From a virus, in the IMG/VR virus record IMGVR_UViG_3300044620_000396, positions 1-34,429 of that record: 34,429 bases of DNA; one strand, 5' to 3'. Within the stretch, counting starts at the first letter, position 1. The number at the start of each line of letters is the position of its first letter. The translations under genes were made by a program, and so were the position numbers. Positions 1 through 34,423 of the stretch are shown here, one piece after another. The notes beneath the pieces were generated by a model. That model worked only from the letters and a program-made list of their open reading frames with translations. It was not told the origin of the DNA and did no database searches.

Positions 1-126
1 GAATTTTGGGGGTTTCTGTTTGAATGATGGATTGTGGTTGAACAATCATTTTGTTTTCGGTCAACCAGGTTTCAAAGGACCAACCATTTGGATGGATGGC
101 CCGTTCGGATTTTTCCCCCTGGTCGT
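1..126. repeat. Terminal direct repeat, left copy
   Basis: Bases 1-126 are identical to 34298-34423. After position 126 the copies differ, and the right copy has only 6 further unmatched bases. The simplest reading is an end overlap from assembling a circular or circularly permuted molecule, because a coding frame continues across the join. A true short terminal repeat is a less likely alternative. Confidence 0.95.
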
Positions 127-2231: not shown

Positions 2232-2328
2232 GTCTGTCGTATTTTGATTTTCTGTTGCGATGAATGACGGCGTCAATTGTCCCAATTAGGCCAATTGTAA
2301 CCAACACAAATGGAATCCATTCAATCAT
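2200..2328 (-). CDS. Small single-pass membrane protein
   Basis: A 42-codon frame whose ATG (2328) overlaps the RecT stop as ATGA, the usual coupling in this genome. The product opens MIEWIPFVLVTIGLIG, a clear hydrophobic membrane-spanning stretch to about residue 22. A basic segment (HRNRKSKYDRH) follows and would stay in the cytoplasm. It overlaps the start of the tandem-HTH gene by 32 nt in another frame. I recognise no family. The function is unknown; short membrane proteins in phage early regions are often host-takeover or superinfection factors, but nothing here shows that. Confidence 0.65.
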   Translation of the reverse strand: MIEWIPFVLVTIGLIGTIDAVIHRNRKSKYDRHENENSKPIR

Positions 2329-3251
2329 TTGGTTTCAAATAAGTCTGTTTGAACTCCGCCGTTGATTTGTTCCAACCTGGTCATGGCGGCGTCCATGATG
2401 TCGGGGTCTGTTTGGTCAATGGTCAATTCCAAAATGGATTCCGTTGATTCTGCGGTCATGATTTGACCAATCAATTTTTCGACGGGGTTTTCCTCGGACG
2501 AATTGGCGGCGCCCGGTGTGGGCGCCTCCAATGCTTTTTTCCGGTCCGTCATTGCGGTTTTGAACACGGGGTTTCCGTGATGCTCCGGATGTTTTTTCCA
2601 AATGTCAATCAAATCGGATTTCGATTTCGCGGCCTCAACTTGGGCAATCAACACGTCCACATTGATGACGGGTTTTTGTTCCAATGGTTGTTTCTGCGTC
2701 TGAATGGTTTCGGCCTCCATTGCGTTCAATTCTTCGGCGGTGTATGGCATTCCGCCCAATTCATCCGAAAAACAAAGTCGGAACCCTTGGGCCATTGCGA
2801 CTTTCTTTGTCATCGTCACCGGTTTGTTTTTCCAAAAATCGGTCAATGTTCCGTCGCGTCTGGTTCCATAATACTCCGAAAAATGAACCTCGTGAACGAA
2901 TGGAAATTGGAAATCCTTTCGATGGATGGTGATGGTCGCGACCAATGTTGATTCCTTTGGCTTGGTGAAATTGACGGCGCCGGTCGTCACAACGGACCAT
3001 CCGGCCAACAGGCCCGAACGTTCCGCGCGTTTGATGTAAGTTTCATAACCGACGATGACCGAAAATTTGTCGCCGTATTTGTTGGCGTAGATTTCGCGTT
3101 TGAACGGGTTCAATCCAAACCCTTGGGCGATTTCAACGAATTGTTCGAATTCACCTTGGGTCAAATTGTTCGCCATTCCCATGGCGTTCAAATACGTTTG
3201 CAATTTGGCGACATCAATGGTGTTGATGCGGTTTTTTGAAATTTCATTCAT
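2325..3251 (-). CDS. RecT/Bet-family single-strand annealing recombinase
   Basis: 308 residues from the ATG at 3251, which follows a CAACAACATC leader and a promoter-like site. The core (about residues 10-180) has the Bet/RecT signature: a helical N-terminus, then GFGLNPFKREIYANKYG, VIVGYETYIKRAERSG and a conserved region ending KKVAMAQGFRLCFSDELGG. These proteins anneal complementary single strands during phage recombination and replication, usually with a 5'-3' exonuclease partner and SSB. SSB is present (34.1 kb); no exonuclease was recognised. The C-terminal third is Gln/Pro/Ala-rich and variable, typical of the SSB-contacting tail region. The family call is firm; the choice between RecT and Bet subfamily is not. 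Confidence 0.92.
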   Translation of the reverse strand: MNEISKNRINTIDVAKLQTYLNAMGMANNLTQGEFEQFVEIAQGFGLNPFKREIYANKYGDKFSVIVGYETYIKRAERSGLLAGWSVVTTGAVNFTKPKESTLVATITIHRKDFQFPFVHEVHFSEYYGTRRDGTLTDFWKNKPVTMTKKVAMAQGFRLCFSDELGGMPYTAEELNAMEAETIQTQKQPLEQKPVINVDVLIAQVEAAKSKSDLIDIWKKHPEHHGNPVFKTAMTDRKKALEAPTPGAANSSEENPVEKLIGQIMTAESTESILELTIDQTDPDIMDAAMTRLEQINGGVQTDLFETK

Positions 3252-3275
3252 GATGTTGTTGTGTTTTGATTTTCG

Positions 3276-3304
3276 CAAATATAATTGAAAAACTATTTTC
3301 CCAA
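3276..3304 (-). promoter_or_regulatory. Promoter-like site upstream of RecT
   Basis: On the minus strand, TATATTTG (3276-3283) matches the Bacteroidota -7 consensus TAnnTTTG. A TTG (3302-3304) sits 18 nt upstream in the -33 position. It overlaps the end of the preceding gene, and the RecT start lies about 25 nt downstream behind a CAAAACACAACAACATC leader. Confidence 0.5.
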
Positions 3305-8585: not shown

Positions 8586-8858
8586 TCAATAGGGTTTTTT
8601 GTTCAACAATTCTTCAGCGTTGGAACCATCAAAACCGGTGTACCATTCAACCGCCGCCATCACAAGTTCGGAAACGGTGATGTTGTATTTGGCGGCGTAT
8701 GCGGTCAAAAACTTTTTTGTTTCATCTGTTACGCGCGCGGCCAAAAGTTTGTCACACGGATGGTCAACCTTAACAAAACCGCGAACGCCTTTGACGCTCC
8801 GGTTCTGTTTGGCTCGGTTCAATTTGGACGATTTGACGCCTGCGGTGATTGTTTTCAT
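8586..8858 (-). CDS. Putative ribbon-helix-helix DNA-binding protein
   Basis: 90 residues. A basic N-terminus (residues 1-30: many Lys/Arg, KSSKLNRAKQNRS) is followed by a segment at about 40-72 that reads as beta-strand, helix, helix: ARVTDETKKFLTAYAAKYN, then ITVSELVMAAVEWY. This is the usual pattern of MetJ/Arc-type ribbon-helix-helix proteins and plasmid or phage CopG-like regulators. It lies alone among virion and lysis genes, so it could control the late operon or bind packaged DNA. The fold call is by pattern; the target is unknown. Confidence 0.65.
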   Translation of the reverse strand: MKTITAGVKSSKLNRAKQNRSVKGVRGFVKVDHPCDKLLAARVTDETKKFLTAYAAKYNITVSELVMAAVEWYTGFDGSNAEELLNKKPY

Positions 8859-12233: not shown

Positions 12234-13259
12234 TTAGTCGCAACCAACAATTGTTGAACAATCCGCAAAATGGAATGTGTAGTTCACGCCGTTGTTCAAA
12301 TCGTCAACGCCAAACGCGTTCGCCGGAATAAAGAACAAGCCCCAATTCAATTGGAGTTTGATTGACCATTGGTCGGCGCAATCGTCATAGTGAACCTTCA
12401 AATCGTATGTCAACCCGGTGAATGGGTCCGTGATGGTGCCATGTTCGAACACGTCGTTTCGCTTGGCATAATCGCCAACGTATTTGTTCCATGTCAACAG
12501 TTGAACCGCGCCCGGTGCCAATACGATGAATTCGTTCGCTCCGATAACTGTGTCAACAAAACGGTCGTTATAATAACGATAATCCGTCCAACGCGAAAGG
12601 TCCATTCCGGTTGATGAATTGCAACATGCAATCTGTTGCGTTTTCGCGTACAAATCAAAGTTTCCGCCGCCAATAATCATTGGCGCTCCGGATGCTCCGG
12701 TCAAATCGTATTCGTGACGGATTTGGGCCGCCGCAATTCCGCGCGGTGCGTTTGATGTCGCCTCAAACAATTGGATGTCCTTTTGGGTTGTTCCATCGCT
12801 GAATTTTCCAAAGTTAGTTGATTGTTCTGCCAACAATTGGTTGTTCAACGCCGTGTTCATCGCGTTCATTTGCGCCATGATAACGTTGGAAACATAAACC
12901 GCGTCCGCCTCACAAAGTTTTCGCATCTGGTCCTCGGAAAACAACATTCCTTTGGTTTCGATACATTCGGTGATTGAAACGATTGTTTCAAGTGGTGAAA
13001 TTTCCTGGTCGGTGTCACATGATGCGGTGCATGTTAGATTAACCGAATCCGCGTTTCCACGCTGAATGTAATTCACCTGAACCGAACGATTTTTTCCGTT
13101 TGTTGGAATTGGAATCGCTTCAAAACCCATGCGGTTTTCTTCAGACATCAACGCGTCCAAATATCCGACGCGGTCACGCTTCAAAGCGGGTGCGTTCATC
13201 CCGGCAACCGCGTTCAAATCGGTTTGCAATTTTTGACAAAGTCCTTGAGTAAATGCCAT
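12234..13259 (-). CDS. Major capsid protein
   Basis: 341 residues from the ATG at 13259, starting MAFTQGLCQKLQTDLNAVAG. A longer in-frame ATG would run through a terminator hairpin and was rejected. Reasons for the call: it directly follows the scaffold gene, has an HK97-like length, and has a capsid-like composition. It contains NPY/NDR-type helical segments, an internal region LSEDQ-like (GMLFSEDQMRKLCEADAVYV), and GANEFIVLAPGAVQLLTWNKY near the end. Several cysteines (CTASCDTD, QQIACCNSS, ADCSTIVGCD) are unusual for a capsid shell and could form cross-links. It is preceded by its own terminator and a long A/T leader, as expected for very high expression. Confidence 0.82.
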   Translation of the reverse strand: MAFTQGLCQKLQTDLNAVAGMNAPALKRDRVGYLDALMSEENRMGFEAIPIPTNGKNRSVQVNYIQRGNADSVNLTCTASCDTDQEISPLETIVSITECIETKGMLFSEDQMRKLCEADAVYVSNVIMAQMNAMNTALNNQLLAEQSTNFGKFSDGTTQKDIQLFEATSNAPRGIAAAQIRHEYDLTGASGAPMIIGGGNFDLYAKTQQIACCNSSTGMDLSRWTDYRYYNDRFVDTVIGANEFIVLAPGAVQLLTWNKYVGDYAKRNDVFEHGTITDPFTGLTYDLKVHYDDCADQWSIKLQLNWGLFFIPANAFGVDDLNNGVNYTFHFADCSTIVGCD

Positions 13260-13307
13260 TTTTTTAAATTTTTTAAATTGATTTTTTGATGTGATTTTTT
13301 GGGCAAC

Positions 13308-13362
13308 AAAAAACCCAAACGCAAAAATGGTCGCCGTGTTGGCGGTCATTTCCGAATTTGGG
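13308..13362 (-). terminator. Putative terminator between scaffold and capsid genes
   Basis: Minus strand: CCCAAA ... TTTGGG outer stem enclosing CGCC-AACAC-GGCG, followed by six T. It occupies much of the 172-nt gap 13260-13431. A partial terminator here could set the ratio of scaffold to capsid messages, provided a promoter for the capsid gene follows; none with a clear TAnnTTTG was found. Confidence 0.6.
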
Positions 13363-13431
13363 TCGGTTCCCCGGTTGGCGTTTATGGTTCGCCATCAACC
13401 CGGTGATTCGTTTACGGCCCGACGGCCCGGT

Positions 13432-14268
13432 TTATTTGGATTCGTTTCCGAATACCTTCATTGTCTGCAATGATGCGGCGTTCGCTTGGGCCTTTGCCAT
13501 TCCTGCCAATTGATATTTGGCCGGTTCGGCTCCATTTGGAACCGGTGATGGCGTTGGCGCTCCATTGCCTGGTTTTGGTGGCGTTTGGCCTCCGTTGGAT
13601 TGTTTAATCACGCCCAACGTCGACAAATGGCCGTCCAATATTTCGTCAAAGGTAACTATTTTCGTTCCATCGTTGTTCAACGGGTTCAAATTATTTTTGG
13701 TCTTGACAACCAATTCGCCGTTGTCATCAACGTCGACATTGAAATTGGATTCCAAATAACTTTGAACAGCGGGTTTCACAACCTCCGGCGAAACAATCAA
13801 CGAACGTTTGGCGATGGCGGATTGGATGAACGATTCGCGTTTGAATGATTTGATGGCCTGTTTGGCCTCGTTTTCCTTTGCCGGAATGATTTCATCAACC
13901 AGACGTTTGTTCTCGTTGGTCAACTCAATCAATCTCGTTTGCAATTCTTCAGCGCCGGCGCCCGCTGTTTTGGTCATCTTATCAAATGCGATTCCAATGA
14001 TGTCGTCGAATTTTTTATCCTTGACATCTTCAGCGGATAAACCAAACGTTTTTTTGATTTTTTGTTCAATCTTGGAAAGTTCGGTTCCTTTTACTTCGCC
14101 TCGGATGGAACCGATGAAATCCGGATTGTTTTTCAAAACGTCGCGTTGGATGTTTTGGAATTCTGCGGCGATGTCATCGACGTTCAATTCCTGGTCATCG
14201 CCGTTCAACTTTGTAATGGCCTCGGATGGAACGCCAATTTTCTTCAAAAATTTTTCAATGTTGGTCAT
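13432..14268 (-). CDS. Scaffolding protein
   Basis: 278 residues, highly charged. An N-terminal helical region with an acidic stretch precedes a long predicted coiled coil (about residues 100-150: ELQTRLIELTNENKRLVDEI, then KENEAKQAIKSFKRE). The centre contains AKRSLIVSPEVVKPAVQSYLESN, a segment type I associate with phage scaffold proteins. A Pro/Gly/Asn-rich linker (about 225-245) and a helical C-terminus (AKAQANAASLQTMKVFG) follow, the usual capsid-binding end. It sits immediately before the major capsid gene. It guides shell assembly and then leaves the prohead. Confidence 0.85.
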   Translation of the reverse strand: MTNIEKFLKKIGVPSEAITKLNGDDQELNVDDIAAEFQNIQRDVLKNNPDFIGSIRGEVKGTELSKIEQKIKKTFGLSAEDVKDKKFDDIIGIAFDKMTKTAGAGAEELQTRLIELTNENKRLVDEIIPAKENEAKQAIKSFKRESFIQSAIAKRSLIVSPEVVKPAVQSYLESNFNVDVDDNGELVVKTKNNLNPLNNDGTKIVTFDEILDGHLSTLGVIKQSNGGQTPPKPGNGAPTPSPVPNGAEPAKYQLAGMAKAQANAASLQTMKVFGNESK

Positions 14269-14274
14269 GGTCTG

Positions 14275-14568
14275 TTAGTTTTTTGGTTTACGTCCTTTTT
14301 TCACCGGCTTGGATTCCACGCCATTGGATTCGATTTCGTCAATCGCGTCGTCCTGGTCGTTGTCTTCAATTTCCGGTTCTGCAATGGTTTGTTCAACGAC
14401 AACCGGTTTGGTGATTGTTGGGGCGCTGAATTTGACCGGCTCGGATGGTTTGTTCAATATTTCATAGAACTTCGATTTGCCGCCCTTTTTAAGGGTGTTC
14501 CATGCGAATTGTGTCACCTCGGCAATTTTGCCCGTTTTGACGTTCTGAATGCGGATTTTTTGGGTCAT
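14275..14568 (-). CDS. Small protein between MuF and scaffold genes
   Basis: 97 residues. An N-terminal 40-residue domain (KIRIQNVKTGKIAEVTQFAW) precedes an acidic, disordered-looking stretch (EPEIEDNDQDDAIDEIESNG) and a basic end (KKGRKPKN). Position between the MuF-fusion gene and scaffold makes it the first gene after the putative toxin domain, where an immunity gene could be expected. However, small proteins of this type are also common at this place in capsid operons without toxins. A promoter-like site lies at 14585-14613. Function not assigned. Confidence 0.75.
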   Translation of the reverse strand: MTQKIRIQNVKTGKIAEVTQFAWNTLKKGGKSKFYEILNKPSEPVKFSAPTITKPVVVEQTIAEPEIEDNDQDDAIDEIESNGVESKPVKKGRKPKN

Positions 14569-14584
14569 TTGTGATTTCTTTGGT

Positions 14585-14613
14585 CAAATATATTGCGAAA
14601 ATTACATTTTCAA
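14585..14613 (-). promoter_or_regulatory. Promoter-like site inside the end of the MuF gene
   Basis: Minus strand: TTG (14611-14613), 18 nt, TATATTTG (14585-14592). It could drive the 97-residue protein, scaffold and capsid separately from the upstream portal/MuF genes. The TAnnTTTG match is exact; the -33 box is weak. Confidence 0.45.
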
Positions 14614-16275
14614 TTTTTTCCAATTTTTCAATGATTCTTCATTGTATGAACCAAAAGTGTTCAATACTTCATCAATAAAATCTTTTGTTTCTTTTGGCAA
14701 TTGCTCAAATTTTGGATTCCATTTGGTCGCCCACAATTCCGCCGCGAATTCGGTCGCGCGCGTTCCTTCTGTTGCATATAATGAAATTAGTGAATCAATT
14801 TTTTTGAAATTTTCTTTAAAAAATTTTTCATTATTTCCCCATGAATTAATGTTTCGGGAAATCCGTTCACTTTGTGGTTGAACGGTCAAATCATAAAAAT
14901 GACCATATTCATGAGAAAAAACGCCCAAATATTTATTTTCATATTTGTCAACCGCAAATCCAATATTTGCGGCGTCAATTGATTCGGTTTTTTCCCGTTC
15001 AAAATCTCTTAGATTTTTTTTGTTATTGTAAACGATTGAATTTGTGTTCGGTTCAAATAATGCCACATTTGTTTGATTTTTTTCATCGTAAATCACCAAA
15101 TCAATTGGTCTTTTTCCGGCGTTATTAAACAAAAATTCGTTGGCAGAATTGACAATTTTCAATTTCGTTTCATTATCAAATTCTACAATTTCGCCGTCTT
15201 TAAAAAGTTTTTTGATATTATCGCGTTTTTGTTTATCAGTCAAACCAAAATTTTCACCAATGATTTCGGTTTTGGCGATTTTATCAATTAATTCATCGCC
15301 TTCATGGTAAACCTCAAAACCATTTTGTTTGGCTCTTTTGATGGCATCATTCAAATTTGAATCGGGTTGAAATTGGTTTTCAATCTTTTGTTTTTCTTCA
15401 GGCAAATTCAATTTTTCCCGTTGTGATTTGGTCAATTTGAATGGAATGGCTGAATGGCGACAATTGTATCCGCCCCGGTAGATGGAAAACGTTTCGGGCG
15501 ATGTTCCCGGAATTGCTCCGGTTCCATTGGCGTTCATCCATGCGATTTCATCCGGCAAATCCTTTGTCTGAATTACACCCATTGCAACCCAACGGCGACA
15601 TTGGGGCCGTGAATCTTCAATCAATGAACCAACGTATCGATAGGCATCCAATCCAAATTGGTTGGCAATCTTCGCGTTCACCTGCCCGTCAAATTGATTC
15701 AACGCGTCCCGGCTGACCTGTTTGACGTAGCGTGACAACGTCCCGTCAACCTCCGGCGTCCCTAAAATGTAGCGTTTCAAATATGCTTCCAAATCCGATT
15801 TGGTTGAACCTGCGACGATGTTTTGAAATATGCCGGTTCGGATTGGTTCGATGAAATTGGTTGAAACGCCGGAACCCGTCAACCCTTGCAATGTTTGTTC
15901 GACTGTTGCGCGTTGGACCGGGTTTATCAATTCGCTCAATTGATCCGGCGACAAATCGTTGACGTTTTGGTGAATGTCCAAATTGAATTGTTTCAACGTT
16001 TCGAAATTCCGCAAAAACTCGTTGACGTCCTTTGGATATGTGGAACCCTGAATGGCGTCCAAAATGATTTTTTCGACCTGGTTGGTCAACAGGACATTCC
16101 CGTCATCGAACACAAAACGTTCACCATCGCTCGAAAACTTTTGGACGTGTTTGGACAACGCCGCGAAAATCCGTTGTTCTGTTGCCGGCAATGAATCAAA
16201 AAAAGTTTGATTCGCTGCGGAAACGGTTTTGTCCTGTTTGCGGATTATGGCAATGACTTTGTCATCGAATTCCAT
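14602..16275 (-). CDS. MuF-type minor head protein fused to HEYGH metallopeptidase-like domain
   Basis: 557 residues. Residues 1 to about 280 are a Mu gpF-like head-morphogenesis domain. It has helical repeats, QVSRDALNQFDGQVNAKIAN, and the hallmark ending EDSRPQCRRW ... YRGGYNCRHSAIPF. It follows portal directly, as MuF proteins do. Residues about 300-557 are an added domain with H455-E-Y-G-H459 (GVFSHEYGHFYDLT), a zincin active-site motif. E509 or E513 (in TEFAAELWA) could be the third zinc ligand. Such C-terminal enzyme domains define MuF polymorphic toxins, carried in virions. The domain's DNA is markedly AT-richer (14 G+C in the 60 bases from 14761, versus 28 in the 60 from 15841), consistent with separate acquisition. 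Protease activity and toxicity are inferred. Confidence 0.88.
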   Translation of the reverse strand: MEFDDKVIAIIRKQDKTVSAANQTFFDSLPATEQRIFAALSKHVQKFSSDGERFVFDDGNVLLTNQVEKIILDAIQGSTYPKDVNEFLRNFETLKQFNLDIHQNVNDLSPDQLSELINPVQRATVEQTLQGLTGSGVSTNFIEPIRTGIFQNIVAGSTKSDLEAYLKRYILGTPEVDGTLSRYVKQVSRDALNQFDGQVNAKIANQFGLDAYRYVGSLIEDSRPQCRRWVAMGVIQTKDLPDEIAWMNANGTGAIPGTSPETFSIYRGGYNCRHSAIPFKLTKSQREKLNLPEEKQKIENQFQPDSNLNDAIKRAKQNGFEVYHEGDELIDKIAKTEIIGENFGLTDKQKRDNIKKLFKDGEIVEFDNETKLKIVNSANEFLFNNAGKRPIDLVIYDEKNQTNVALFEPNTNSIVYNNKKNLRDFEREKTESIDAANIGFAVDKYENKYLGVFSHEYGHFYDLTVQPQSERISRNINSWGNNEKFFKENFKKIDSLISLYATEGTRATEFAAELWATKWNPKFEQLPKETKDFIDEVLNTFGSYNEESLKNWKKLKM

Positions 16276-16284
16276 GTGGTTTGT

Positions 16285-17970
16285 TTACGCGGTTTGAATC
16301 AATTGGGCGGTGACATACGAATCAATCGTTGGTTGGATTCTGCGGTCCAATTCTGCGAATATTTCGCCCAATGGTTTTTCCAAAAATTCGGTTCCGAATT
16401 CTGCGGTCACTCCAATCAATGTTTTGTAAGCAAACAACGAACGAATCAAATCGTCACGTTTGATGGAACCCGCCGCCAACAACATTTGTTTGTCCTTTGT
16501 GTTCAAATGGAAAATTGGGTCATAAGAAACCAAAACTTCGACCATCCGCGAAACGGATTTGTTGCCGGAAAAACGTTTTCGCGCTAAATCTTTGGTTGAT
16601 TCAACCAGAAACGCAATTGGGGCGTTTTTGTCTGTCAACTTATTCAATTCATCAATCAAATCGTCTTCGGTTTTCATCGAAAACGAAATTGGCTTGGTGA
16701 TGACCGGGTTCATTGGCTCGTTGACATTCCGATATTTTTCAATGAACAACAACGATTTGAAAATGATTTCATCAAATATGTTGTTGGAAATTTTGGTCAA
16801 CTGCGAAAACGAATCTTCGCGGTCAATCATTTTGGCCACTCCGGATTGGCTTTCGTCAATCACGTTCAAATGCAACGATTCTTCAGCCTTTTTCAAAAGG
16901 GTTTGCCATGCCTGTCCCGAATATTCAATGATACTTACATCCGGCGATATGAAACGAATCATTGGCCCGTTGACATCACCATCGACGCCCAACGCCGGAT
17001 TTGATTTTTCACGCAAAAAAACGCCAAATGGCGAACGTGAAATCACGCGTCCGGTTCCTTTGCAAATGCCACACGTTTCGTGTTCCTCGGATTCGTGATT
17101 GTACACAATACCATCGCGGCAACCCTTACCATTGCAATTTTCTGCGATTTCCTCGCGATACGGAAACGCGGATGTGGTCATGACTGCGGTCCAATCGCTG
17201 TATTGGCGAATCGCTTCATTGGCGAATGGAACGAACGCGGAAAAATAGGAATCAAAAAAGTTTTCATCCGTCAAATCGCCGCCCAATATAACGCCCGGAA
17301 TCGCTCCAATGTTGTGTTGGTATATGACAACCGTTTCAAATTTTTTGTCAATGGATTGTCCGACCTGGGTATGTTTCAAAAACTCGGTGTCCGTCAATGA
17401 ATAAAAAACGGCGCCGGTCTGTTGCAATTTGCCGTTCACCATGATGTTTGAAAATTCATCTGGTGAACGCCATGTCAAAAGTCTTGGTTCCAAAACTTTG
17501 ATGTGGTCGGACATAATCAACAGGGGTTCGACGTCAACTTTGACCGATGGATTGGTCAACCCTTCACCAACAGGAATCCAAACCAACCATCCGTTCGGGT
17601 CCTCAATCATGCGGCGAACGACAAATTTTTGAATGTACGAATAAAAATATTGTCCGTCAAATTTCCGTTCTGTTAGATATGTGTTCAATTCGTCGGAAAC
17701 GGAAATTGAAAAATTGGCGTTTTGGAATATCCGGAACAACTTATCAATGGCCCGGTTCATGGAACCTTTGGTGATTGGTTCGTATATGCTCAAACGATAT
17801 TTTTGAACGTCGGGGTCCTCGTTGGGACGACGTGACGTCAAAATTTCACCGGGGTTTTTGCCCCGTGTATGGATGAACATGGTGCTCCGAACCTGGTTCC
17901 AATGGTCCCAATTTTTCGGTTTATATTGTTCGCTCGACAACGCGGTCGATATGTTTTCAATCGTTATCAT
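16285..17970 (-). CDS. Portal protein with zinc-knuckle insertion
   Basis: 561 residues, directly before the MuF gene as portals usually are. N-terminal segments such as KYRLSIYEPITKGSMNRAID and later helical parts (DSFSQLTKISNNIFDEIIFK) fit the portal wing and stem. FFDSYFSAFVPFANEAIRQY resembles the corresponding stretch in SPP1/DUF1073-like portals. Residues about 279-308 hold a four-Cys unit: C279 and C284, then C300-G-I-C303-K-G-T-G. This is like the CxxCxGxG zinc-finger repeats of DnaJ. The ring of about 12 subunits would carry as many zinc sites. Portal identity is inferred from position plus pattern; the zinc site is visible in the sequence. Confidence 0.85.
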   Translation of the reverse strand: MITIENISTALSSEQYKPKNWDHWNQVRSTMFIHTRGKNPGEILTSRRPNEDPDVQKYRLSIYEPITKGSMNRAIDKLFRIFQNANFSISVSDELNTYLTERKFDGQYFYSYIQKFVVRRMIEDPNGWLVWIPVGEGLTNPSVKVDVEPLLIMSDHIKVLEPRLLTWRSPDEFSNIMVNGKLQQTGAVFYSLTDTEFLKHTQVGQSIDKKFETVVIYQHNIGAIPGVILGGDLTDENFFDSYFSAFVPFANEAIRQYSDWTAVMTTSAFPYREEIAENCNGKGCRDGIVYNHESEEHETCGICKGTGRVISRSPFGVFLREKSNPALGVDGDVNGPMIRFISPDVSIIEYSGQAWQTLLKKAEESLHLNVIDESQSGVAKMIDREDSFSQLTKISNNIFDEIIFKSLLFIEKYRNVNEPMNPVITKPISFSMKTEDDLIDELNKLTDKNAPIAFLVESTKDLARKRFSGNKSVSRMVEVLVSYDPIFHLNTKDKQMLLAAGSIKRDDLIRSLFAYKTLIGVTAEFGTEFLEKPLGEIFAELDRRIQPTIDSYVTAQLIQTA

Positions 17971-19056: not shown

Positions 19057-22000
19057 TTATGGACATAATGTGTTGCCAATCCTAAATGTTGCCGTGTTGG
19101 TCATAACCGGGCCAATTGGTTTAACCATTGTCCACGCGCCCGCCGTTGACGCGCCCCAAACGACCGATTGTGAACCGGACGTTGAACCGATTGGCAATGT
19201 GATTGGTGTTCCGGCGTTTGAATGTTGGCCAAACCAAAATTCCAAAACTGCGGTGGTTGGTGATGCGAACGACCATTCGAAAACATAGGTTTGGCCCGGA
19301 ATTGGGTTCGGTTCAAAACCTGTCGTCGTCCACATCCATAAATATCCAAAGTTACTTCCAACGAAATTGACTACACAATCAATTCCGAATTGAGTTATCG
19401 ACGGAACGTTGACGCCCGTTCCGCCATTGCGACGATGTTGAACAAATCGTTCACATATTGTCGGCGCCTCCGGTGTACTGATATAACCACAAAACAAATA
19501 ATTGTCTGCGGTCATCTGTTGCGCGTCCAAAATCACTTCAGCAGTAAACAACGCCGGGTCAAAAACGGTGTCCATGCTCACAACCAATGGCGATGTCAAT
19601 TGTGTCAACGCCTGTGGTGATGAAACTTCGTTGTTTTCCTGCAATACAGGCAAACCAAACGGCGCCGGTTCTGCAAAAAATATGAAATTGCCTTCGCGGT
19701 CCGCCTGGTAAACCAAACGGATTTGGGCAAAATCTTTGAAACAAATTTCGCCGTCCAACTCCGTCCACGCTCCGGTCAATGATGTTCGGCCATAAATGGC
19801 AACATCGTTCAAATAATTTCCGAACCCTGAAAATGGTTCGAAATCAATGGCCCGAACCGGAAACGCCCGAACGATGTTCCAAAGGAATGGCGAACCCGTA
19901 ATTGGCGCCAAATTGAATGTGATGGTATATTCAAAAAACACATCGTATCCAATCCATGAATCGACGGCGCCGGCTGTGGCGATGTACGTTGACGACATGG
20001 CCCCGGCGGAAACTCGGTTCATATATGACGCCGTGTTGGCTGTTTGAACAATTCCCGAATTGAACGGAATGTTCTGCCAACGAACGCGGCGATTTGAAAT
20101 CGTCACGTCCAATCCGCCCGTTGTATTGTCCAAAACAATCATGTTGTTCTGGTTGTTGAAATTCCCGGCGAATCCAACGTCGCGCGATGAAATATGTGTT
20201 TCGTATTGGAAAAACGTTGTTTGTGGCGGATTTGGGAAACCCGTTTGGCGTTTGTATATGTTCAACCGAACGAATCCAATCAAATCCCTCCAATCGCCCG
20301 TGTATCCCCAATTTTCCAAACAGTCAACGAACGGTCCGCCGTCAATGGTCAACGTTTGACCAATGCGTTCTTTGGCGCTCGGTTGAAACGCGTTCGCGGC
20401 GGTGTTCTGCCAATATTGTTGGAATGTTGAATTGATGTCCAATTCGCAATCGCAATCAAAATCCGGAATGGTTTGAACGCGCCATTCATTTGACAAAAAT
20501 GTGTTGACCATGGTTCCATCGCTGTCATAAACGATGGCGGCCATCCGGTAACGTGACGACGGGTTGACGGTCGTTCCAACGTACAAATTGAAAACCCAAT
20601 CGCCCGAAATATTGACGACCGAACCAGGACGAACCAAATGATTGTCCAACACGCCCGTTCCGCCATAACCATCCACGCGGAAACGCGATGAATCGGATGA
20701 CGTTAAAAAATCAACCGTGTTGTCAAAATTGGTCACGTCAAACAGGTGATAAATGCAAACCGGTTCACCGGCTCCATATATTCCCGGAATGGTGATTTTG
20801 AAACGAACGTTTGTTTTCTCCAATGTGGACAATCCGGTCACGGGTCCAATGTTGCGCGACAATTCCCATGTTGGGTTCAAAAACTCGGATGGTTGATTGT
20901 ACAATCCAAGGTCATAAAAACGCGCCGTGTAATTGGCGCAACTTACAAACTGACAACGCGTGAAATTGAAATTTTCATCCAAAACATTGGGGTCCACAAC
21001 CATGACCGCCCCGGAAATCACTTTGTTGGCGTTATAAACCGACGGCGTTGAATTGGTCCAATCTGTTGGCGCTGAAATCGTGTTGCGCGTTAATTTGCCC
21101 AAATTGTCCCATGATGTTGGCGTGATGAAATTTTCCAAATCCTGAAGATTGAAAAACGTCAACTCAATTTGGAACGTTCCCAATGCGGCGTTCAATGGCG
21201 TGAATGTACATTCCCAATTTTTACGGTTTGCCGCGTTTCCTGCGGTTCCGGTCAATGACATTGGTTGCGCCACGCCATCCGGCATGAAACTCTGAAGATA
21301 GGTGATTGTGTAACCTGCCGGCAACAATTGACCGGGCAAAAACGGTGAATCACACAACCTCAAAAACAAACCAGGGTTGAACTGCAATTGCCATTGGGAA
21401 TTGATTCCGGATGGATAAACCAGGGAAAACACAACCGTTTTTCGCTCCAAAAATGACGCGGTCGAATACAAATTCCCGTCATTGCATAAACCCGAAACAT
21501 CCGGCAAATATCCGTTCTCTGTTTTGACGGTGATGTCAACGCAACACAAACAGTTTTCACACTCCAACGCAACCGAATTTCCGGTCAACGTAAACGAACC
21601 GCCGCAATCGTCATCAATCGAACATGACAACGTTTCGCCAACTGTTGCCGGCGTCCATGTGACGTCAAATGATGTTCCGACGCCTTGGGTGATGACCATC
21701 GGATTTGGGGTGATGGTCACGCCCGTACATCCGGAAATCGTCAACGGATAAAGTGACGAAAACAACATCGATTGATTGGCGAAAATTGTTTGTGTGGTTG
21801 GAACGCCAACCGGGGCGTCAACGAAATCCAATGATAAGGTTGACCAATCCAAATAAGTTGAATCCGTGCAAACCATGTCGAACGAATAGGGCGTGTCCGG
21901 TGCATGTTCGAACGTATCAAATCGACCAATCCATGAACCCAATGGCGACGTCACACCGTCCCAACAAACCTGAAATTCCATCGTAAATGTTCCGCCATCC

Positions 22001-22227
22001 GGAACTAAAAATGGAAACGACGGTGGCAACCCGTCAATGGCCGTCAATGTCACCGTGACGCCCGAACCGGTTGTGTCAATCAAAAAACTGACAACATTCA
22101 AATCCGAACCATGTGTGTTTTGGAACGTCGAAACATTTGTTCCGCATCCATCACCGGCGCAACACAACAGACGGTTCAAATTGCCGTCAACATAAAGGCC
22201 GTCAATGATTTCAATTCTGTTTGGCAT
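19057..22227 (-). CDS. Large tail-tip/baseplate protein with Ig-like domain
   Basis: 1056 residues. The first about 220 residues match the N-terminus of the 281-residue protein at 10730-11575, including an ASH/HYDIN-like domain (about 129-219: WTPATVGETLSCSI, then F-T-L-T-G-N). A Cys motif (LECENCLCCVDITVK) follows. The remaining 800 residues are beta-rich with many Asn, Thr, Gly and aromatic residues, as in receptor-binding or central tail-tip proteins. Position two genes after the tape measure suits a tip or fibre protein. The exact role is unknown. It is 11 nt downstream of the hub candidate gene, so all tail-tip genes form one unit. Confidence 0.72.
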   Translation of the reverse strand: MPNRIEIIDGLYVDGNLNRLLCCAGDGCGTNVSTFQNTHGSDLNVVSFLIDTTGSGVTVTLTAIDGLPPSFPFLVPDGGTFTMEFQVCWDGVTSPLGSWIGRFDTFEHAPDTPYSFDMVCTDSTYLDWSTLSLDFVDAPVGVPTTQTIFANQSMLFSSLYPLTISGCTGVTITPNPMVITQGVGTSFDVTWTPATVGETLSCSIDDDCGGSFTLTGNSVALECENCLCCVDITVKTENGYLPDVSGLCNDGNLYSTASFLERKTVVFSLVYPSGINSQWQLQFNPGLFLRLCDSPFLPGQLLPAGYTITYLQSFMPDGVAQPMSLTGTAGNAANRKNWECTFTPLNAALGTFQIELTFFNLQDLENFITPTSWDNLGKLTRNTISAPTDWTNSTPSVYNANKVISGAVMVVDPNVLDENFNFTRCQFVSCANYTARFYDLGLYNQPSEFLNPTWELSRNIGPVTGLSTLEKTNVRFKITIPGIYGAGEPVCIYHLFDVTNFDNTVDFLTSSDSSRFRVDGYGGTGVLDNHLVRPGSVVNISGDWVFNLYVGTTVNPSSRYRMAAIVYDSDGTMVNTFLSNEWRVQTIPDFDCDCELDINSTFQQYWQNTAANAFQPSAKERIGQTLTIDGGPFVDCLENWGYTGDWRDLIGFVRLNIYKRQTGFPNPPQTTFFQYETHISSRDVGFAGNFNNQNNMIVLDNTTGGLDVTISNRRVRWQNIPFNSGIVQTANTASYMNRVSAGAMSSTYIATAGAVDSWIGYDVFFEYTITFNLAPITGSPFLWNIVRAFPVRAIDFEPFSGFGNYLNDVAIYGRTSLTGAWTELDGEICFKDFAQIRLVYQADREGNFIFFAEPAPFGLPVLQENNEVSSPQALTQLTSPLVVSMDTVFDPALFTAEVILDAQQMTADNYLFCGYISTPEAPTICERFVQHRRNGGTGVNVPSITQFGIDCVVNFVGSNFGYLWMWTTTGFEPNPIPGQTYVFEWSFASPTTAVLEFWFGQHSNAGTPITLPIGSTSGSQSVVWGASTAGAWTMVKPIGPVMTNTATFRIGNTLCP

Positions 22228-22238
22228 TCTGTTTATTT

Positions 22239-23906
22239 TTAAACGATTCCGGAAACGCCAATGGTCCGTTTCACAAAATCAATTTGTAGTTCTTTGATTT
22301 CCCCAAATTTAACGGAATTCCCAACGCGGATTCTGACGGATTTTGAAAAATCAATGGCGTCATATTGCCCGCAATCGAAAGAAAACGTGAAATTGAAATT
22401 GAACAATCTGGTTCCGGGCAACCTCGGATTGTCGATGTAATGAAACAACGTGTACAAATTATTTGTGTTGTCCTCGTTGAATGTCATTGGATAATTGTAC
22501 AAATTAGCCGGCGGAATTGGTGTGACATTCACCAACAAAGGGTTTGAAACGCCGGGCGGCCAATACGGACGATTGACGTTTCCCCCGGTGAATGTTGTCG
22601 AATAGTTGAAATTTGCGCGCGCGAAATCGTTTCCACTGCCTGCATTCCAAATGATGAATTTGTAGTTGGACGCCGTATGGTTGGCCATCAACAAATTTCC
22701 ATTGGTTGATTGGATGAACGCGTTGGTTGTTAGACTGAAAAGGAAATTGGATGACGCCTCCAACAAAACATCCGGACCGGCGGCATCATTCCGGAAACGT
22801 GATTTCGATGACGCCAATGTCAATTCCAACGCGTCTTTTTGCCGTTCGGATGGCGGCGAATTCCATTCAACTATGTCCTCGTATCGTCCGCCGGCTTCGT
22901 TTGATGTGATGTCAAACGCGTCCATGTTGTATTTGTAAATGGCGAACGCCTTTTGTGGTTTATCAATCCATGAAAAACAAATTTGGTTGTCAACGATTCT
23001 GCCATCATTCAACAATTGTTCGGAATCAATCCATTGGTTTGTGTTGCTGAAAAAATCTTTGCGTTCAAAAACTAATGTATTGCCGACAATCCAATATTTC
23101 GCATTGAAAATGGAATTCAAATGGCGGGTGAATAATGTGTCCAATGTTTCGATTGGGACATTTTGTTCAATTAGTTTTGACTCTGTGTCGCTCGGTTTGT
23201 AACCCTTTTGAATTGGCGCCGAAAACAACAATAAATCGAAATAAGGTGAACCAGGGTCGTTCAAAATGGACGATTGAAACGTCAACCCGCATTTGCGACA
23301 AACGTTTTGAATGTAGTCACGAACCAATGGCGTTGGATGGTAAAAATTACATTGAATCATGCGCGCTTTGAAATTGTCCATGAATCCGAATATTTCAGAC
23401 GTTCCAAGGGTGACAATCGCAATCAACAAATTGATGGCGCCATAAACGTAAAACAAAATGACGTAAATGAATTCCGGACGCGGTTCAACGCAATATCTCA
23501 ACTTTTTTTGCGCCTGGTCCAAAAAACCATCATGGTCGTCGGTGATTAGCGTTGATTTGACGCAATTCAATGCGGCTTTTTTTTCAATCACGCTTCCGGA
23601 AATCCAACATTCAGGGTCACACCAATCAATTGAACTGCCGGAAATAAACCCGTCGAAAACCAACCGACCACAACATTCGTCAAAGATTTGAACGTCAACC
23701 TCGTTGATGAATCCATTCGGGTCATCAATCAACAGACTTTTCAAAATGGAATATCCGTCGTCATAAAAACGCAATTCCGACGAATAAGATTTGGCCAATC
23801 CGCCATCGTCATCGTTTTCGCGCCATGTGACGTTGAATTGTTCAACGCCATCAATCCGCCCGGTGATGGTGATTCCGTTTAATTTTATGACAATCGGTGA
23901 TTTCAT
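22239..23906 (-). CDS. Putative tail hub / distal tail-type protein
   Basis: 555 residues, overlapping the tape measure stop by 4 nt. The N-terminus is beta-rich (PIVIKLNGITITGRIDGVEQ, ELRFYDDGYSILKSLL) with an early Cys pair (DECCGRLVFDGFISG), like domains of hub/baseplate proteins of the gp27 type. A hydrophobic helix around residues 147-172 (YVILFYVYGAINLLIAIVTL) is unusual for a tail protein. The centre holds a Cys pair (CRKCGLTFQ), and the C-terminus is beta-rich. The first gene after the tape measure usually encodes the distal tail or hub protein, which supports the call; no diagnostic motif proves it. Confidence 0.68.
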   Translation of the reverse strand: MKSPIVIKLNGITITGRIDGVEQFNVTWRENDDDGGLAKSYSSELRFYDDGYSILKSLLIDDPNGFINEVDVQIFDECCGRLVFDGFISGSSIDWCDPECWISGSVIEKKAALNCVKSTLITDDHDGFLDQAQKKLRYCVEPRPEFIYVILFYVYGAINLLIAIVTLGTSEIFGFMDNFKARMIQCNFYHPTPLVRDYIQNVCRKCGLTFQSSILNDPGSPYFDLLLFSAPIQKGYKPSDTESKLIEQNVPIETLDTLFTRHLNSIFNAKYWIVGNTLVFERKDFFSNTNQWIDSEQLLNDGRIVDNQICFSWIDKPQKAFAIYKYNMDAFDITSNEAGGRYEDIVEWNSPPSERQKDALELTLASSKSRFRNDAAGPDVLLEASSNFLFSLTTNAFIQSTNGNLLMANHTASNYKFIIWNAGSGNDFARANFNYSTTFTGGNVNRPYWPPGVSNPLLVNVTPIPPANLYNYPMTFNEDNTNNLYTLFHYIDNPRLPGTRLFNFNFTFSFDCGQYDAIDFSKSVRIRVGNSVKFGEIKELQIDFVKRTIGVSGIV

Positions 23907-32210: not shown

Positions 32211-32436
32211 AATGGTTCAAAAATAAATCAACTGTTTGTTCAATGTTCATGTCCGAATCGGTGATGAACCGGGCGAATTCTGCCAACATTTTGTGTTCTG
32301 CGGCCATCATTTGGGTTTTGTGTTCTGCCATCCATTTGGCGAAATCCGGATGGAATTGGAATCGGTGATAAATAATTTTGACGGGGCGGCGGTTCATCAA
32401 TTCGTTGACGTCACCAAAATGGTCATGTTCGTTCAT
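32197..32436 (-). CDS. Small hypothetical protein after methyltransferase
   Basis: 79 residues starting MNEHDHFGDVNELMNRRPVK. A short strand (KIIYHRFQFHPDFAKWM) is followed by Met/His-rich helices (AEHKTQMMAAEHKMLAEFAR) and an acidic C-terminal helix. It overlaps the methyltransferase end by 14 nt. His and Met enrichment is notable but without a binding motif. No family recognised. Confidence 0.72.
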   Translation of the reverse strand: MNEHDHFGDVNELMNRRPVKIIYHRFQFHPDFAKWMAEHKTQMMAAEHKMLAEFARFITDSDMNIEQTVDLFLNHYENN

Positions 32437-33292
32437 TTATTTGTTCAAATTTTTCGATTGACTTGAATATTTCAAAAACTACCTGTGGAACAACGGCGTT
32501 TCCATATGCTTTGATTGATTCGTTTCGCCATTTTGAAAAGGTAATTCCGTCCAATCCGGAGGGAACCCCATCATTTCGGCCACAAACCGGGTATTGAGTT
32601 GGGAAATCTGCCCACTCATTAACCGGACGCGTTTTGTCAATGAATCTTGATTTTCTAAACCTGTTATTTTTTCCCCCTCCATCGCCTGTGGGGTTGGCAA
32701 CATGGTTGTCATCCATTTCGCTATTGATTCCTCCAAATTGCCTTTGTTGCGATTTGCAAGATTCGTTGAATTCAAATTTGCTCCGTTTACTTTGTTCGCT
32801 CTGGGTGTTGGCAGCAATAAACCAAATTCGTTCCCGTTTGTGTGGCGCATTGGTCGCGCATGCAGGTATAAGATAGGGCGTGACTGAATAGCCAATATTT
32901 TCCAAGTTAGAACACACTTCGTCGAATACCATTCCCCCGTTCCAATTAGTAAGTCCGCGAACGTTTTCGCCCACAACGAAACGCGGGGCAATTTCCTCAA
33001 TCGCTCGCAACATGTGGGGCCACAAATGGCGTTCATCCTCATTTCCAAGTCGTTTTCCCCCAATTGAATAGGGTTGACAAGGGAATCCGCCGGAAATAAT
33101 ATCAATTGTTCCATGGTATTTTGTGAAATCTGTTTTTGTTATATCTTCAAATGATTCGGCGTTTGGCCAATAATGTTTCAAAACTCGTTGGCCAAATGGG
33201 TTCCATTCGCAATGGAAAACATTTTCCCAACCCATCCATTCGGCGGCCAAATCGAAACCGCCAATTCCTGAAAAAAGCGAACCATGTTTCAT
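32423..33292 (-). CDS. DNA (cytosine-5) methyltransferase
   Basis: 289 residues with all main C5-MTase motifs. Motif I is LFSGIGGFDLAAEW (6-19). Motif IV is SGGFPCQPYS with catalytic C72. Motif VI is ENVRG (109-113), and motif VIII is HKRERIW (151-157). Motif X is YGNAVVPQV near 263-271. It transfers methyl groups from SAM to cytosine C5 in a specific DNA site. The recognition region (about 160-255) is short and polar, rich in Gln, Ser, Lys and Asn. No restriction enzyme gene is next to it, so it is an orphan enzyme, likely protecting phage DNA from host restriction. Its ATG overlaps the upstream stop by 4 nt. A second long frame overlaps it (32479-33114). Confidence 0.95.
   Translation of the reverse strand: MKHGSLFSGIGGFDLAAEWMGWENVFHCEWNPFGQRVLKHYWPNAESFEDITKTDFTKYHGTIDIISGGFPCQPYSIGGKRLGNEDERHLWPHMLRAIEEIAPRFVVGENVRGLTNWNGGMVFDEVCSNLENIGYSVTPYLIPACATNAPHKRERIWFIAANTQSEQSKRSKFEFNESCKSQQRQFGGINSEMDDNHVANPTGDGGGKNNRFRKSRFIDKTRPVNEWADFPTQYPVCGRNDGVPSGLDGITFSKWRNESIKAYGNAVVPQVVFEIFKSIEKFEQINERT
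32479..33114 (-). CDS. Overlapping ORF inside the methyltransferase gene (possible overprinted protein)
   Basis: A 211-codon frame on the same strand, one base out of register with the methyltransferase (covering its codons about 60-271). It reads as a familiar phage protein type: MEQLILFPADSLVNP, then ICGPTCCERLRKL, STKCVLTWKILAI, LLLPTPRAN, MLPTPQAM and a close FVAEMMGFPPDWTELPF. I recall similar LLPTPTA...MMGFP-x-WT proteins from many phages. These same phrases arise from shifting the methyltransferase frame (IWFIAANTQ gives FGLLLPTPR; HVANPTGDG gives TMLPTPQAM). So this may be a true double-coding locus or a recurring annotation shadow. Expression is not shown. Confidence 0.4.
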   Translation of the reverse strand: MEQLILFPADSLVNPIQLGENDLEMRMNAICGPTCCERLRKLPRVSLWAKTFADLLIGTGEWYSTKCVLTWKILAIQSRPILYLHARPMRHTNGNEFGLLLPTPRANKVNGANLNSTNLANRNKGNLEESIAKWMTTMLPTPQAMEGEKITGLENQDSLTKRVRLMSGQISQLNTRFVAEMMGFPPDWTELPFQNGETNQSKHMETPLFHR

Positions 33293-34287: not shown

Positions 34288-34423
34288 TTGATTAATTGAA
34301 TTTTGGGGGTTTCTGTTTGAATGATGGATTGTGGTTGAACAATCATTTTGTTTTCGGTCAACCAGGTTTCAAAGGACCAACCATTTGGATGGATGGCCCG
34401 TTCGGATTTTTCCCCCTGGTCGT
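34284..34423 (-). CDS. Hypothetical protein, 3' part (same gene as 1-214)
   Basis: This is the second copy of the repeated end plus the final 14 nt of the junction-spanning 75-codon gene, ending in TGA at 34284-34286. The complete gene is obtained by joining base 1 to 34297; see the left-end entry. It is cut at the right edge, where the last six window bases do not match. Confidence 0.75.
34298..34423. repeat. Terminal direct repeat, right copy
   Basis: Identical to bases 1-126. Followed by six bases (34424-34429) that differ from 127-132. Best explained as assembly overlap of a circular or circularly permuted genome of about 34,297 bp. Confidence 0.95.

What the first reader, a model, noticed from the sequence alone, without database searches (positions are those of the whole stretch)
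14602..16275. MuF capsid protein carrying a HEYGH metallopeptidase-like toxin domain
Seen: a MuF-type N-terminal half ending in YRGGYNCRHSAIPF, then a C-terminal half with H455-E-Y-G-H459 and possible third ligand E509/E513. The DNA of the second half is much AT-richer (14/60 G+C from 14761 versus 28/60 from 15841). Known: MuF proteins with variable C-terminal enzymes form a polymorphic-toxin family, mostly in temperate phages. Inference: the virion could deliver a zinc protease into the host or a competitor. No integrase is visible here, which makes the setting unusual, and no obvious immunity protein is adjacent.
Basis: partly seen in the sequence, partly recalled or inferred. Interest (0 to 1): 0.8.

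Follow-up and report, generated by a model that had tools for sequence, protein, structure and literature searches.

The report
Phage capsid protein with swappable protease tail
This phage's minor head protein ends in a probable zinc-protease domain that relatives replace with other enzymes; the phage is probably strictly lytic, a setting where such 'toxin cassettes' had not been reported, although nobody has yet shown that the enzyme works or is injected.

Summary
The ORF is real: 557 aa, window 16275→14602, minus strand, directly after the portal gene. Residues 1-290 are a diverged MuF domain. Residues ~291-557 are a separate AT-rich cassette (31.6% versus 46.6% G+C) with H455-E-Y-G-H459 and E509/E513, conserved in both homologues found (96% and 57% identical).

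The cassette is swapped between phages. Relatives 95-100% identical on both sides carry unrelated C-termini, and across 46 related MuF N-termini the tree needs at least 18 changes of C-terminal type: three zincin-like families (A here, B, C), ADP-ribosyltransferase, PARP-like, Zeta toxin, or none. HExxH plus a downstream Glu is intact in all 33 zincin-type C-termini checked. Families B and C have a dedicated small downstream ORF (15 of 15; 15 of 16). Family A has none (0 of 3).

Family A aligns remotely but collinearly with bacterial ATLF-like zincins, above all 100 shuffles. No Pfam domain reaches threshold, and AlphaFold2 models were too poor to confirm the fold.

The window is a complete genome (126-bp terminal repeat) without integrase, resolvase or transposase; the literature ties MuF toxins to temperate phages.

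Verdict: a new variant of MuF polymorphic effectors, probably virion-delivered zincins in virulent phages. Activity, toxicity and delivery are untested.

The parts
14602..16275 (-). MuF-zincin fusion gene, 557 aa
   Evidence: full-length homologues L001 and L023
15406..16275 (-). N-terminal MuF-like (portal-associated minor head) domain, residues 1-290
   Evidence: 12-member alignment; Phage_min_cap2 in 8 of 12 members, best 1.2e-6; Pelagibacter phage hits
14605..15405 (-). C-terminal cassette, family A zincin-like domain, residues 291-557; swapped between phages
   Evidence: identity to L002/L003 drops from 95-100% to about 43-61% exactly here; to L001 it rises to 89-98% on an ~85% backbone
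14899..14913 (-). H455-E-Y-G-H459 motif codons
   Evidence: H, E, H invariant in 3 of 3 family A members and HExxH present in 15 of 15 B and 15 of 15 C
14737..14751 (-). E509-F-A-A-E513, candidate third zinc ligand (E509) and neighbouring Glu
   Evidence: invariant in family A; E509 column invariant in the 16-sequence A+B+C alignment
14569..14601 (.). 33-base gap where B and C relatives carry the partner ORF; none here
16285..17970 (-). portal protein, 561 aa
   Evidence: phrog_7376 portal, 1.3e-9
14275..14568 (-). 97-aa conserved gene downstream, in most relatives whatever the CTD type, hence not a cognate partner
12234..14268 (-). scaffold-like (13432-14268) and major-capsid-like (12234-13349) genes; assigned by position only
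   Evidence: conserved order in relatives; no informative family match
1..126 (+). terminal repeat, identical to 34298-34423: complete, terminally redundant genome assembly

Best explanation
The gene encodes a MuF-type polymorphic effector. The N-terminal MuF domain places the protein in the head at the portal vertex. The C-terminal ~265 residues are a diverged ATLF/M90-like zinc peptidase (H455, H459 and E509 as ligands, E456 as general base) that enters the infected cell with the DNA and cuts a host protein, either to help takeover or to damage a rival occupant. Phages exchange this domain, with a small partner gene when there is one, as a cassette between two conserved flanks. SHOWN here: the cassette structure and its repeated swapping, conservation of the catalytic residues, purifying selection, family-specific partner ORFs for families B and C, and absence of integrase. 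INFERRED: fold, zinc binding, proteolysis, virion location, injection and target.
For: Between portal and scaffold/capsid genes. Window versus L002 and L003: 95-100% nt identity on both sides, ~55% inside 15400-14605. L001 versus L012: 98.9% identical through the MuF N-terminus but CTD A versus C. Window/L001 dS 0.27 in the CTD against 0.72 in the N-terminus. At least 18 changes of CTD type on the tree of 46 N-termini. Other CTDs on the same N-terminus: ADPrib_exo_Tox 3e-17, Zeta_toxin 2.7e-14, PARP 2.3e-4 (sub-cutoff), Peptidase_M90 1.3e-5 (sub-cutoff). All B and C CTDs tested keep HExxH and E[FWI]xx[EH]. Family A versus bacterial ATLF-like zincins: collinear hhalign over 168 columns, score 38.4, best of 100 column shuffles 25.2; versus family C, 41.5 against 22.8. 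Family A dN/dS 0.06-0.25.
Against: No usable structure: pLDDT 55 and 42, no significant Foldseek match. No informative Pfam, PHROG, NCBIfam or PDB match for family A. No partner ORF for family A, although 89% of published MuF toxins have a small ORF next to them (PMC5576092). Only three family A members are known. No virion, toxicity or protease data.
Confidence: 0.66

Rival explanations
1. The zincin is an internal processing enzyme: it cuts its own linker or head proteins during assembly, or releases itself after ejection, as proposed for metallopeptidase domains of phage polyvalent proteins, and does not attack the host.
For: Phage virion proteins with zincin-like domains have been proposed to self-process (PMC5512222). 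Family A has no dedicated partner ORF, as expected if it is harmless to the producing cell.
Against: Eight relatives have no C-terminal domain and four carry ART, PARP-like or Zeta-toxin domains in its place, so assembly does not need a protease here. Families B and C travel with their own small genes.
Confidence: 0.17
2. The conserved HExxH/E residues belong to a fold that is not, or no longer, a peptidase, and the C-terminus is a variable structural or DNA-binding extension.
For: No domain-database match, and models too poor to show a zincin. HEYxHFYD can occur by chance in unrelated proteins.
Against: Catalytic residues kept in all 33 zincin-type CTDs checked; family A alignment to ATLF-like zincins beats all shuffles and is collinear through HExxH, the Glu helix and the C-terminal helix. 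Replacement by known effector classes argues for an effector.
Confidence: 0.12
3. These phages are temperate by a route that carries no integrase gene (for example plasmid-like), so this is an ordinary temperate-phage MuF toxin in the published sense. (Concerns lifestyle; compatible with the best explanation.)
For: A 90-aa gene at 8586-8858 has weak similarity to a phage repressor family (phrog_876, 3.2e-5). Distant short MuF homologues occur in Bacteroidota genomes.
Against: No integrase or resolvase in 20 records and no rve transposase in 12, including the complete window genome and collinear permuted relatives. No partition protein among the genes scanned, but not every gene was scanned.
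Confidence: 0.25

Closest known systems
MuF polymorphic toxins (Jamet et al. 2017, PMC5576092)
   Same: MuF N-terminus behind the portal, variable C-terminal enzymes (metallopeptidase about 20% and ART 14% of known cases), short forms without C-terminus, small downstream ORFs in relatives
   Different: published cases are in temperate phages, mostly of Firmicutes; [quoted passage not shown] Here: complete genome without integrase, a C-terminus no library recognises, and no downstream partner ORF
Tox-ALFMetallopeptidase / ATLF (Pfam PF07737) and Peptidase_M90 zincins (Zhang et al. 2012, PMC3482391, for the former)
   Same: HExxH plus Glu on a later helix; families B (hhalign P 8e-11 to ATLF-like proteins) and C (M90, 1.3e-5) match; family A matches remotely
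   Different: family A reaches no curated threshold; that survey listed the ALF class with PVC and T2SS delivery, not with MuF
Zincin-like MPTase of phage polyvalent proteins (Iyer et al. 2017, PMC5512222)
   Same: zincin domain in a phage virion-associated protein, thought to be delivered with DNA
   Different: those are multi-domain polyvalent proteins; here a single swappable C-terminal cassette on a MuF domain
Apk2 MuF toxin with IapK/Aph1 (PMC12226406) and Bxa of Bacteroides prophages (PMC11699363)
   Same: phage-encoded C-terminal toxin with dedicated immunity proteins
   Different: different enzymes; encoded by prophages; immunity tested there, not here

Membership tests
MuF polymorphic toxin family | N-terminal MuF superfamily domain | tested here: met
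   Phage_min_cap2 in 8 of 12 family members, best 1.2e-6; the window's own match (0.011) is below the curated cut-off
MuF polymorphic toxin family | gene immediately downstream of the portal gene | tested here: met
   portal at 16285-17970 minus, phrog_7376 1.3e-9
MuF polymorphic toxin family | variable C-terminal effector domains on a conserved N-terminus | tested here: met
   seven C-terminal states, at least 18 changes on the tree of 46; ART and Zeta toxin above Pfam cut-off
MuF polymorphic toxin family | small immunity ORF directly downstream | tested here: not met
   none for family A (33-base gap in the window; 0 of 3); present for B 15/15 and C 15/16. A usual feature (89% of published cases), not universal
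MuF polymorphic toxin family | carried by temperate phages | tested here: not met
   no integrase, resolvase or rve in the complete genome or relatives; absence evidence only
MuF polymorphic toxin family | C-terminal domain is toxic to bacteria | not testable with these tools
   needs expression
gluzincin peptidases, ATLF (M34)/M90-like | HExxH plus third-ligand Glu on a later helix, conserved | tested here: met
   residues invariant in 3 of 3 family A and present in all B and C CTDs tested; that they sit on helices is not shown
gluzincin peptidases, ATLF (M34)/M90-like | sequence homology to the family | tested here: inconclusive
   family A: no informative Pfam hit; hhalign to ATLF-like set 66% probability, score 38.4 versus shuffle maximum 25.2
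gluzincin peptidases, ATLF (M34)/M90-like | zincin fold with clustered ligands | tested here: inconclusive
   AlphaFold2 pLDDT 55 and 42; only the low-confidence A+B+C model puts helices on HEYGHFYD and EFAAELW
gluzincin peptidases, ATLF (M34)/M90-like | zinc-dependent proteolysis | not testable with these tools
   needs biochemistry

The most novel reading that the evidence does not exclude
An obligately lytic phage lineage runs a polymorphic effector system in its capsid: exchangeable zincin, ART, PARP-like and Zeta cassettes, most zincins with cognate inhibitors, act in conflicts over the infected cell (host defences or competing phages) instead of protecting lysogens; family A is a partner-less zincin whose extra N-terminal part may keep it inactive until ejection.
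Probability: 0.3. Interest if true: 0.8.

Novelty: new variant of a known kind. Interest (0 to 1): 0.62.

Why it matters
Published surveys tie MuF toxins to temperate phages and explain them through lysogeny or competition between lysogens. A swappable MuF effector system in complete genomes without integrase is hard to explain that way, and points to conflicts inside the infected cell. Because near-identical phages differ so sharply in this cassette, the set is a natural experiment: closely similar virions with protease A, B, C or, in more distant relatives, ART, Zeta toxin or nothing. It also supplies two candidate zincin-inhibitor pairs and a zincin family that present libraries miss.

Tried and rejected
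Structure prediction with 3 family A sequences and with a mixed A+B+C alignment: too poor, Foldseek matches not significant. Family A in bacterial genomes: the search for related loci found none; an exact HEYxHFYD search gave TrmFO-like and other unrelated proteins; a profile search of 395 Bacteroidota genomes gave five weak hits, of which the three inspected lack HExxH and are chance. Family A in annotated phages and plasmids: none. Alternative-frame or antisense genes inside the family A cassette as a hidden partner: the long open frames are antisense; none was seen kept in L023, but this was judged by eye only. Partner families B and C elsewhere in the window: none. PADLOC: nothing convincing. 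Considered and set aside: capsid maturation protease, because relatives without the domain or with non-proteases exist.

Full report
WHAT IS THERE. The feature is one minus-strand ORF, 16275→14602, 557 aa. It follows the portal gene (16285-17970, phrog_7376, 1.3e-9) and precedes a 97-aa gene, a scaffold-like gene and a major-capsid-like gene; the last two are assigned by position only, in an order kept in relatives. Residues 1-290 are a diverged MuF domain: the window's own Pfam match to Phage_min_cap2 is sub-threshold (0.011), but 8 of 12 relatives match, best 1.2e-6. Residues 291-557 are AT-rich (31.6% versus 46.6% G+C; GC3 27% versus 53%). In all 36 relatives measured the C-terminus was also poorer in G+C than its N-terminus, in some by only a point or two.

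THE C-TERMINUS IS A SWAPPED CASSETTE. Portal and MuF N-terminus queries brought in about 80 viral loci. Relatives L002 and L003 are mostly 95-100% identical to the window on both sides of the cassette, apart from a less similar patch (57-93%) inside the MuF domain at about 16000-15700, yet inside 15400-14605 identity is about 43-61%, the level of unrelated DNA. Conversely L001 has an ~85% backbone but an 89-98% identical family A cassette; synonymous divergence is 0.27 in the cassette and 0.72 in the MuF part. L001 is in turn 98.9% identical to L012 through the MuF N-terminus, but L012 carries a different C-terminus. On a tree of 46 N-termini at least 18 changes of C-terminal type are needed.

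WHAT SITS AT THE C-TERMINUS. Three zincin-like families: A (window, L001, L023), B (15 sequences) and C (16). Others: ADP-ribosyltransferase (L055, 3e-17), PARP-like (L081, 2.3e-4, below cut-off; L083 is its near copy), Zeta toxin (L075, 2.7e-14), and eight short proteins without C-terminus. Fifteen of 15 B and 15 of 15 C C-termini tested keep HExxH and a downstream E[FWI]xx[EH]; the three A members keep H455, E456, H459, E509 and E513. Family C matches Peptidase_M90 (1.3e-5, just under its cut-off). Family B matches bacterial ATLF-like zincins (L132-L137, themselves ATLF at 2e-5, just under cut-off) with hhalign P 8e-11, and its profile weakly ranks two kinds of solved zincin of this type first (0.0075 and 0.05). 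Family A has no library match. Its profile aligns collinearly over 168 columns to the ATLF-like proteins, putting HEYGH on HEFGH, the EFAAE segment close to EYWAE, and the following helix in register: score 38.4, best of 100 column shuffles 25.2; against family C 41.5 versus 22.8. This is evidence for remote homology, not proof of fold. Two AlphaFold2 jobs were too poor (pLDDT 55 with the catalytic half mostly below 40; pLDDT 42) and gave no significant structural match. The low-confidence second model does put helices over HEYGHFYD and over EFAAELW.

PARTNER GENES. Directly downstream of family B C-termini lies a 57-60 aa ORF (15 of 15 loci, start codon unsure in some), downstream of family C an ORF of about 70-77 aa (15 of 16; L076 is a weak hit and L007 a very weak one at a contig end). 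Each profile finds its own family only, except for the remnant described next; neither is found with A, with short forms or with the other effectors. dN/dS for these ORFs is 0.07-0.58, below 0.5 in most pairs. L003, a type C locus, has its C partner followed by a 32-aa remnant of a B partner (profile E 2e-4), a trace of an earlier type B cassette. Family A has no such ORF: 33 bases separate it from the next gene in the window, and the gap is similarly short in L001 and L023. By analogy with published MuF immunity genes (PMC5576092; PMC12226406) the B and C ORFs are candidate inhibitors; this is inference.

LIFESTYLE AND HOST. Bases 1-126 equal 34298-34423 exactly; relatives G001-G003 are collinear and circularly permuted relative to the window, so the window is a complete genome. 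No phage integrase or resolvase was found in 20 records, nor rve transposase in 12, while controls rang. The phages are therefore probably virulent, though a 90-aa protein with weak repressor similarity (8586-8858) keeps the question open. Distant short MuF homologues occur in 4 of 395 genomes of one Bacteroidota class, with a portal-like gene beside one, so a Bacteroidota host is a plausible guess, not shown.

MECHANISM, AND WHICH STEPS ARE SHOWN. Shown: a modular, repeatedly exchanged C-terminus with conserved catalytic residues under purifying selection, in a head-gene position, in a complete genome without integrase. Inferred: zinc binding, proteolysis, packaging, injection with the DNA, and a host or rival target. 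The processing-enzyme rival is weakened by relatives that have no C-terminus or a non-protease there. For family A the missing partner could mean low toxicity to the producer, a target met only after injection, or self-inhibition by its extra N-terminal ~90 residues, the only part modelled with confidence in the first job.

COMPARISON WITH THE KNOWN. It works like, and in most defining features belongs to, the MuF polymorphic toxins. Two usual features were tested and not met (downstream immunity ORF; temperate phage), so I file it as a new variant. [quoted passage not shown]

Noticed in passing
L008:9332-9550 and equivalents (L011, L012, L003, L070, L082, L086 and others): Family of about 70-77 aa ORFs directly behind family C zincins, 15 of 16 loci and nowhere else among the loci searched; candidate inhibitor.
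   Followed up: partly
L015:9909-10079 and equivalents (L002, L017-L020, L026, L069 and others): Family of 57-60 aa ORFs directly behind family B zincins, 15 of 15 loci; candidate inhibitor.
   Followed up: partly
L003:6864-6965: 32-aa remnant of a family B partner behind a family C cassette and its own partner: a fossil of cassette replacement.
   Followed up: partly
L055:10727-10927 and L081:4857-4988: Both the ART and the PARP-like C-terminus are followed by small ORFs sharing a 'AFPEGIPEEIL...H' / 'AFPNGIPCEIL...H' motif; possible shared partner family for ADP-ribosylating effectors.
   Followed up: no
window 32423-33292: C-5 cytosine DNA methyltransferase (Pfam 9.3e-47) that does not align to relatives G001 and G002 at DNA level, so apparently an accessory gene.
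   Followed up: partly
window 2325-3278: RecT-family annealing protein (8.1e-27); could promote the cassette exchange seen here.
   Followed up: no
window 8586-8858: 90-aa protein with weak similarity to a phage repressor family (phrog_876, 3.2e-5), the only hint of a lysogeny-type regulator.
   Followed up: no
window 19057-23399: Second region of strong divergence among otherwise similar genomes (64-76% nt identity with unaligned stretches), probably tail or receptor proteins.
   Followed up: no
L132-L137: Bacteroidota ATLF-like zincins of about 225-240 aa, apparently with N-terminal signal-like segments, just under Pfam's cut-off; function unknown.
   Followed up: partly
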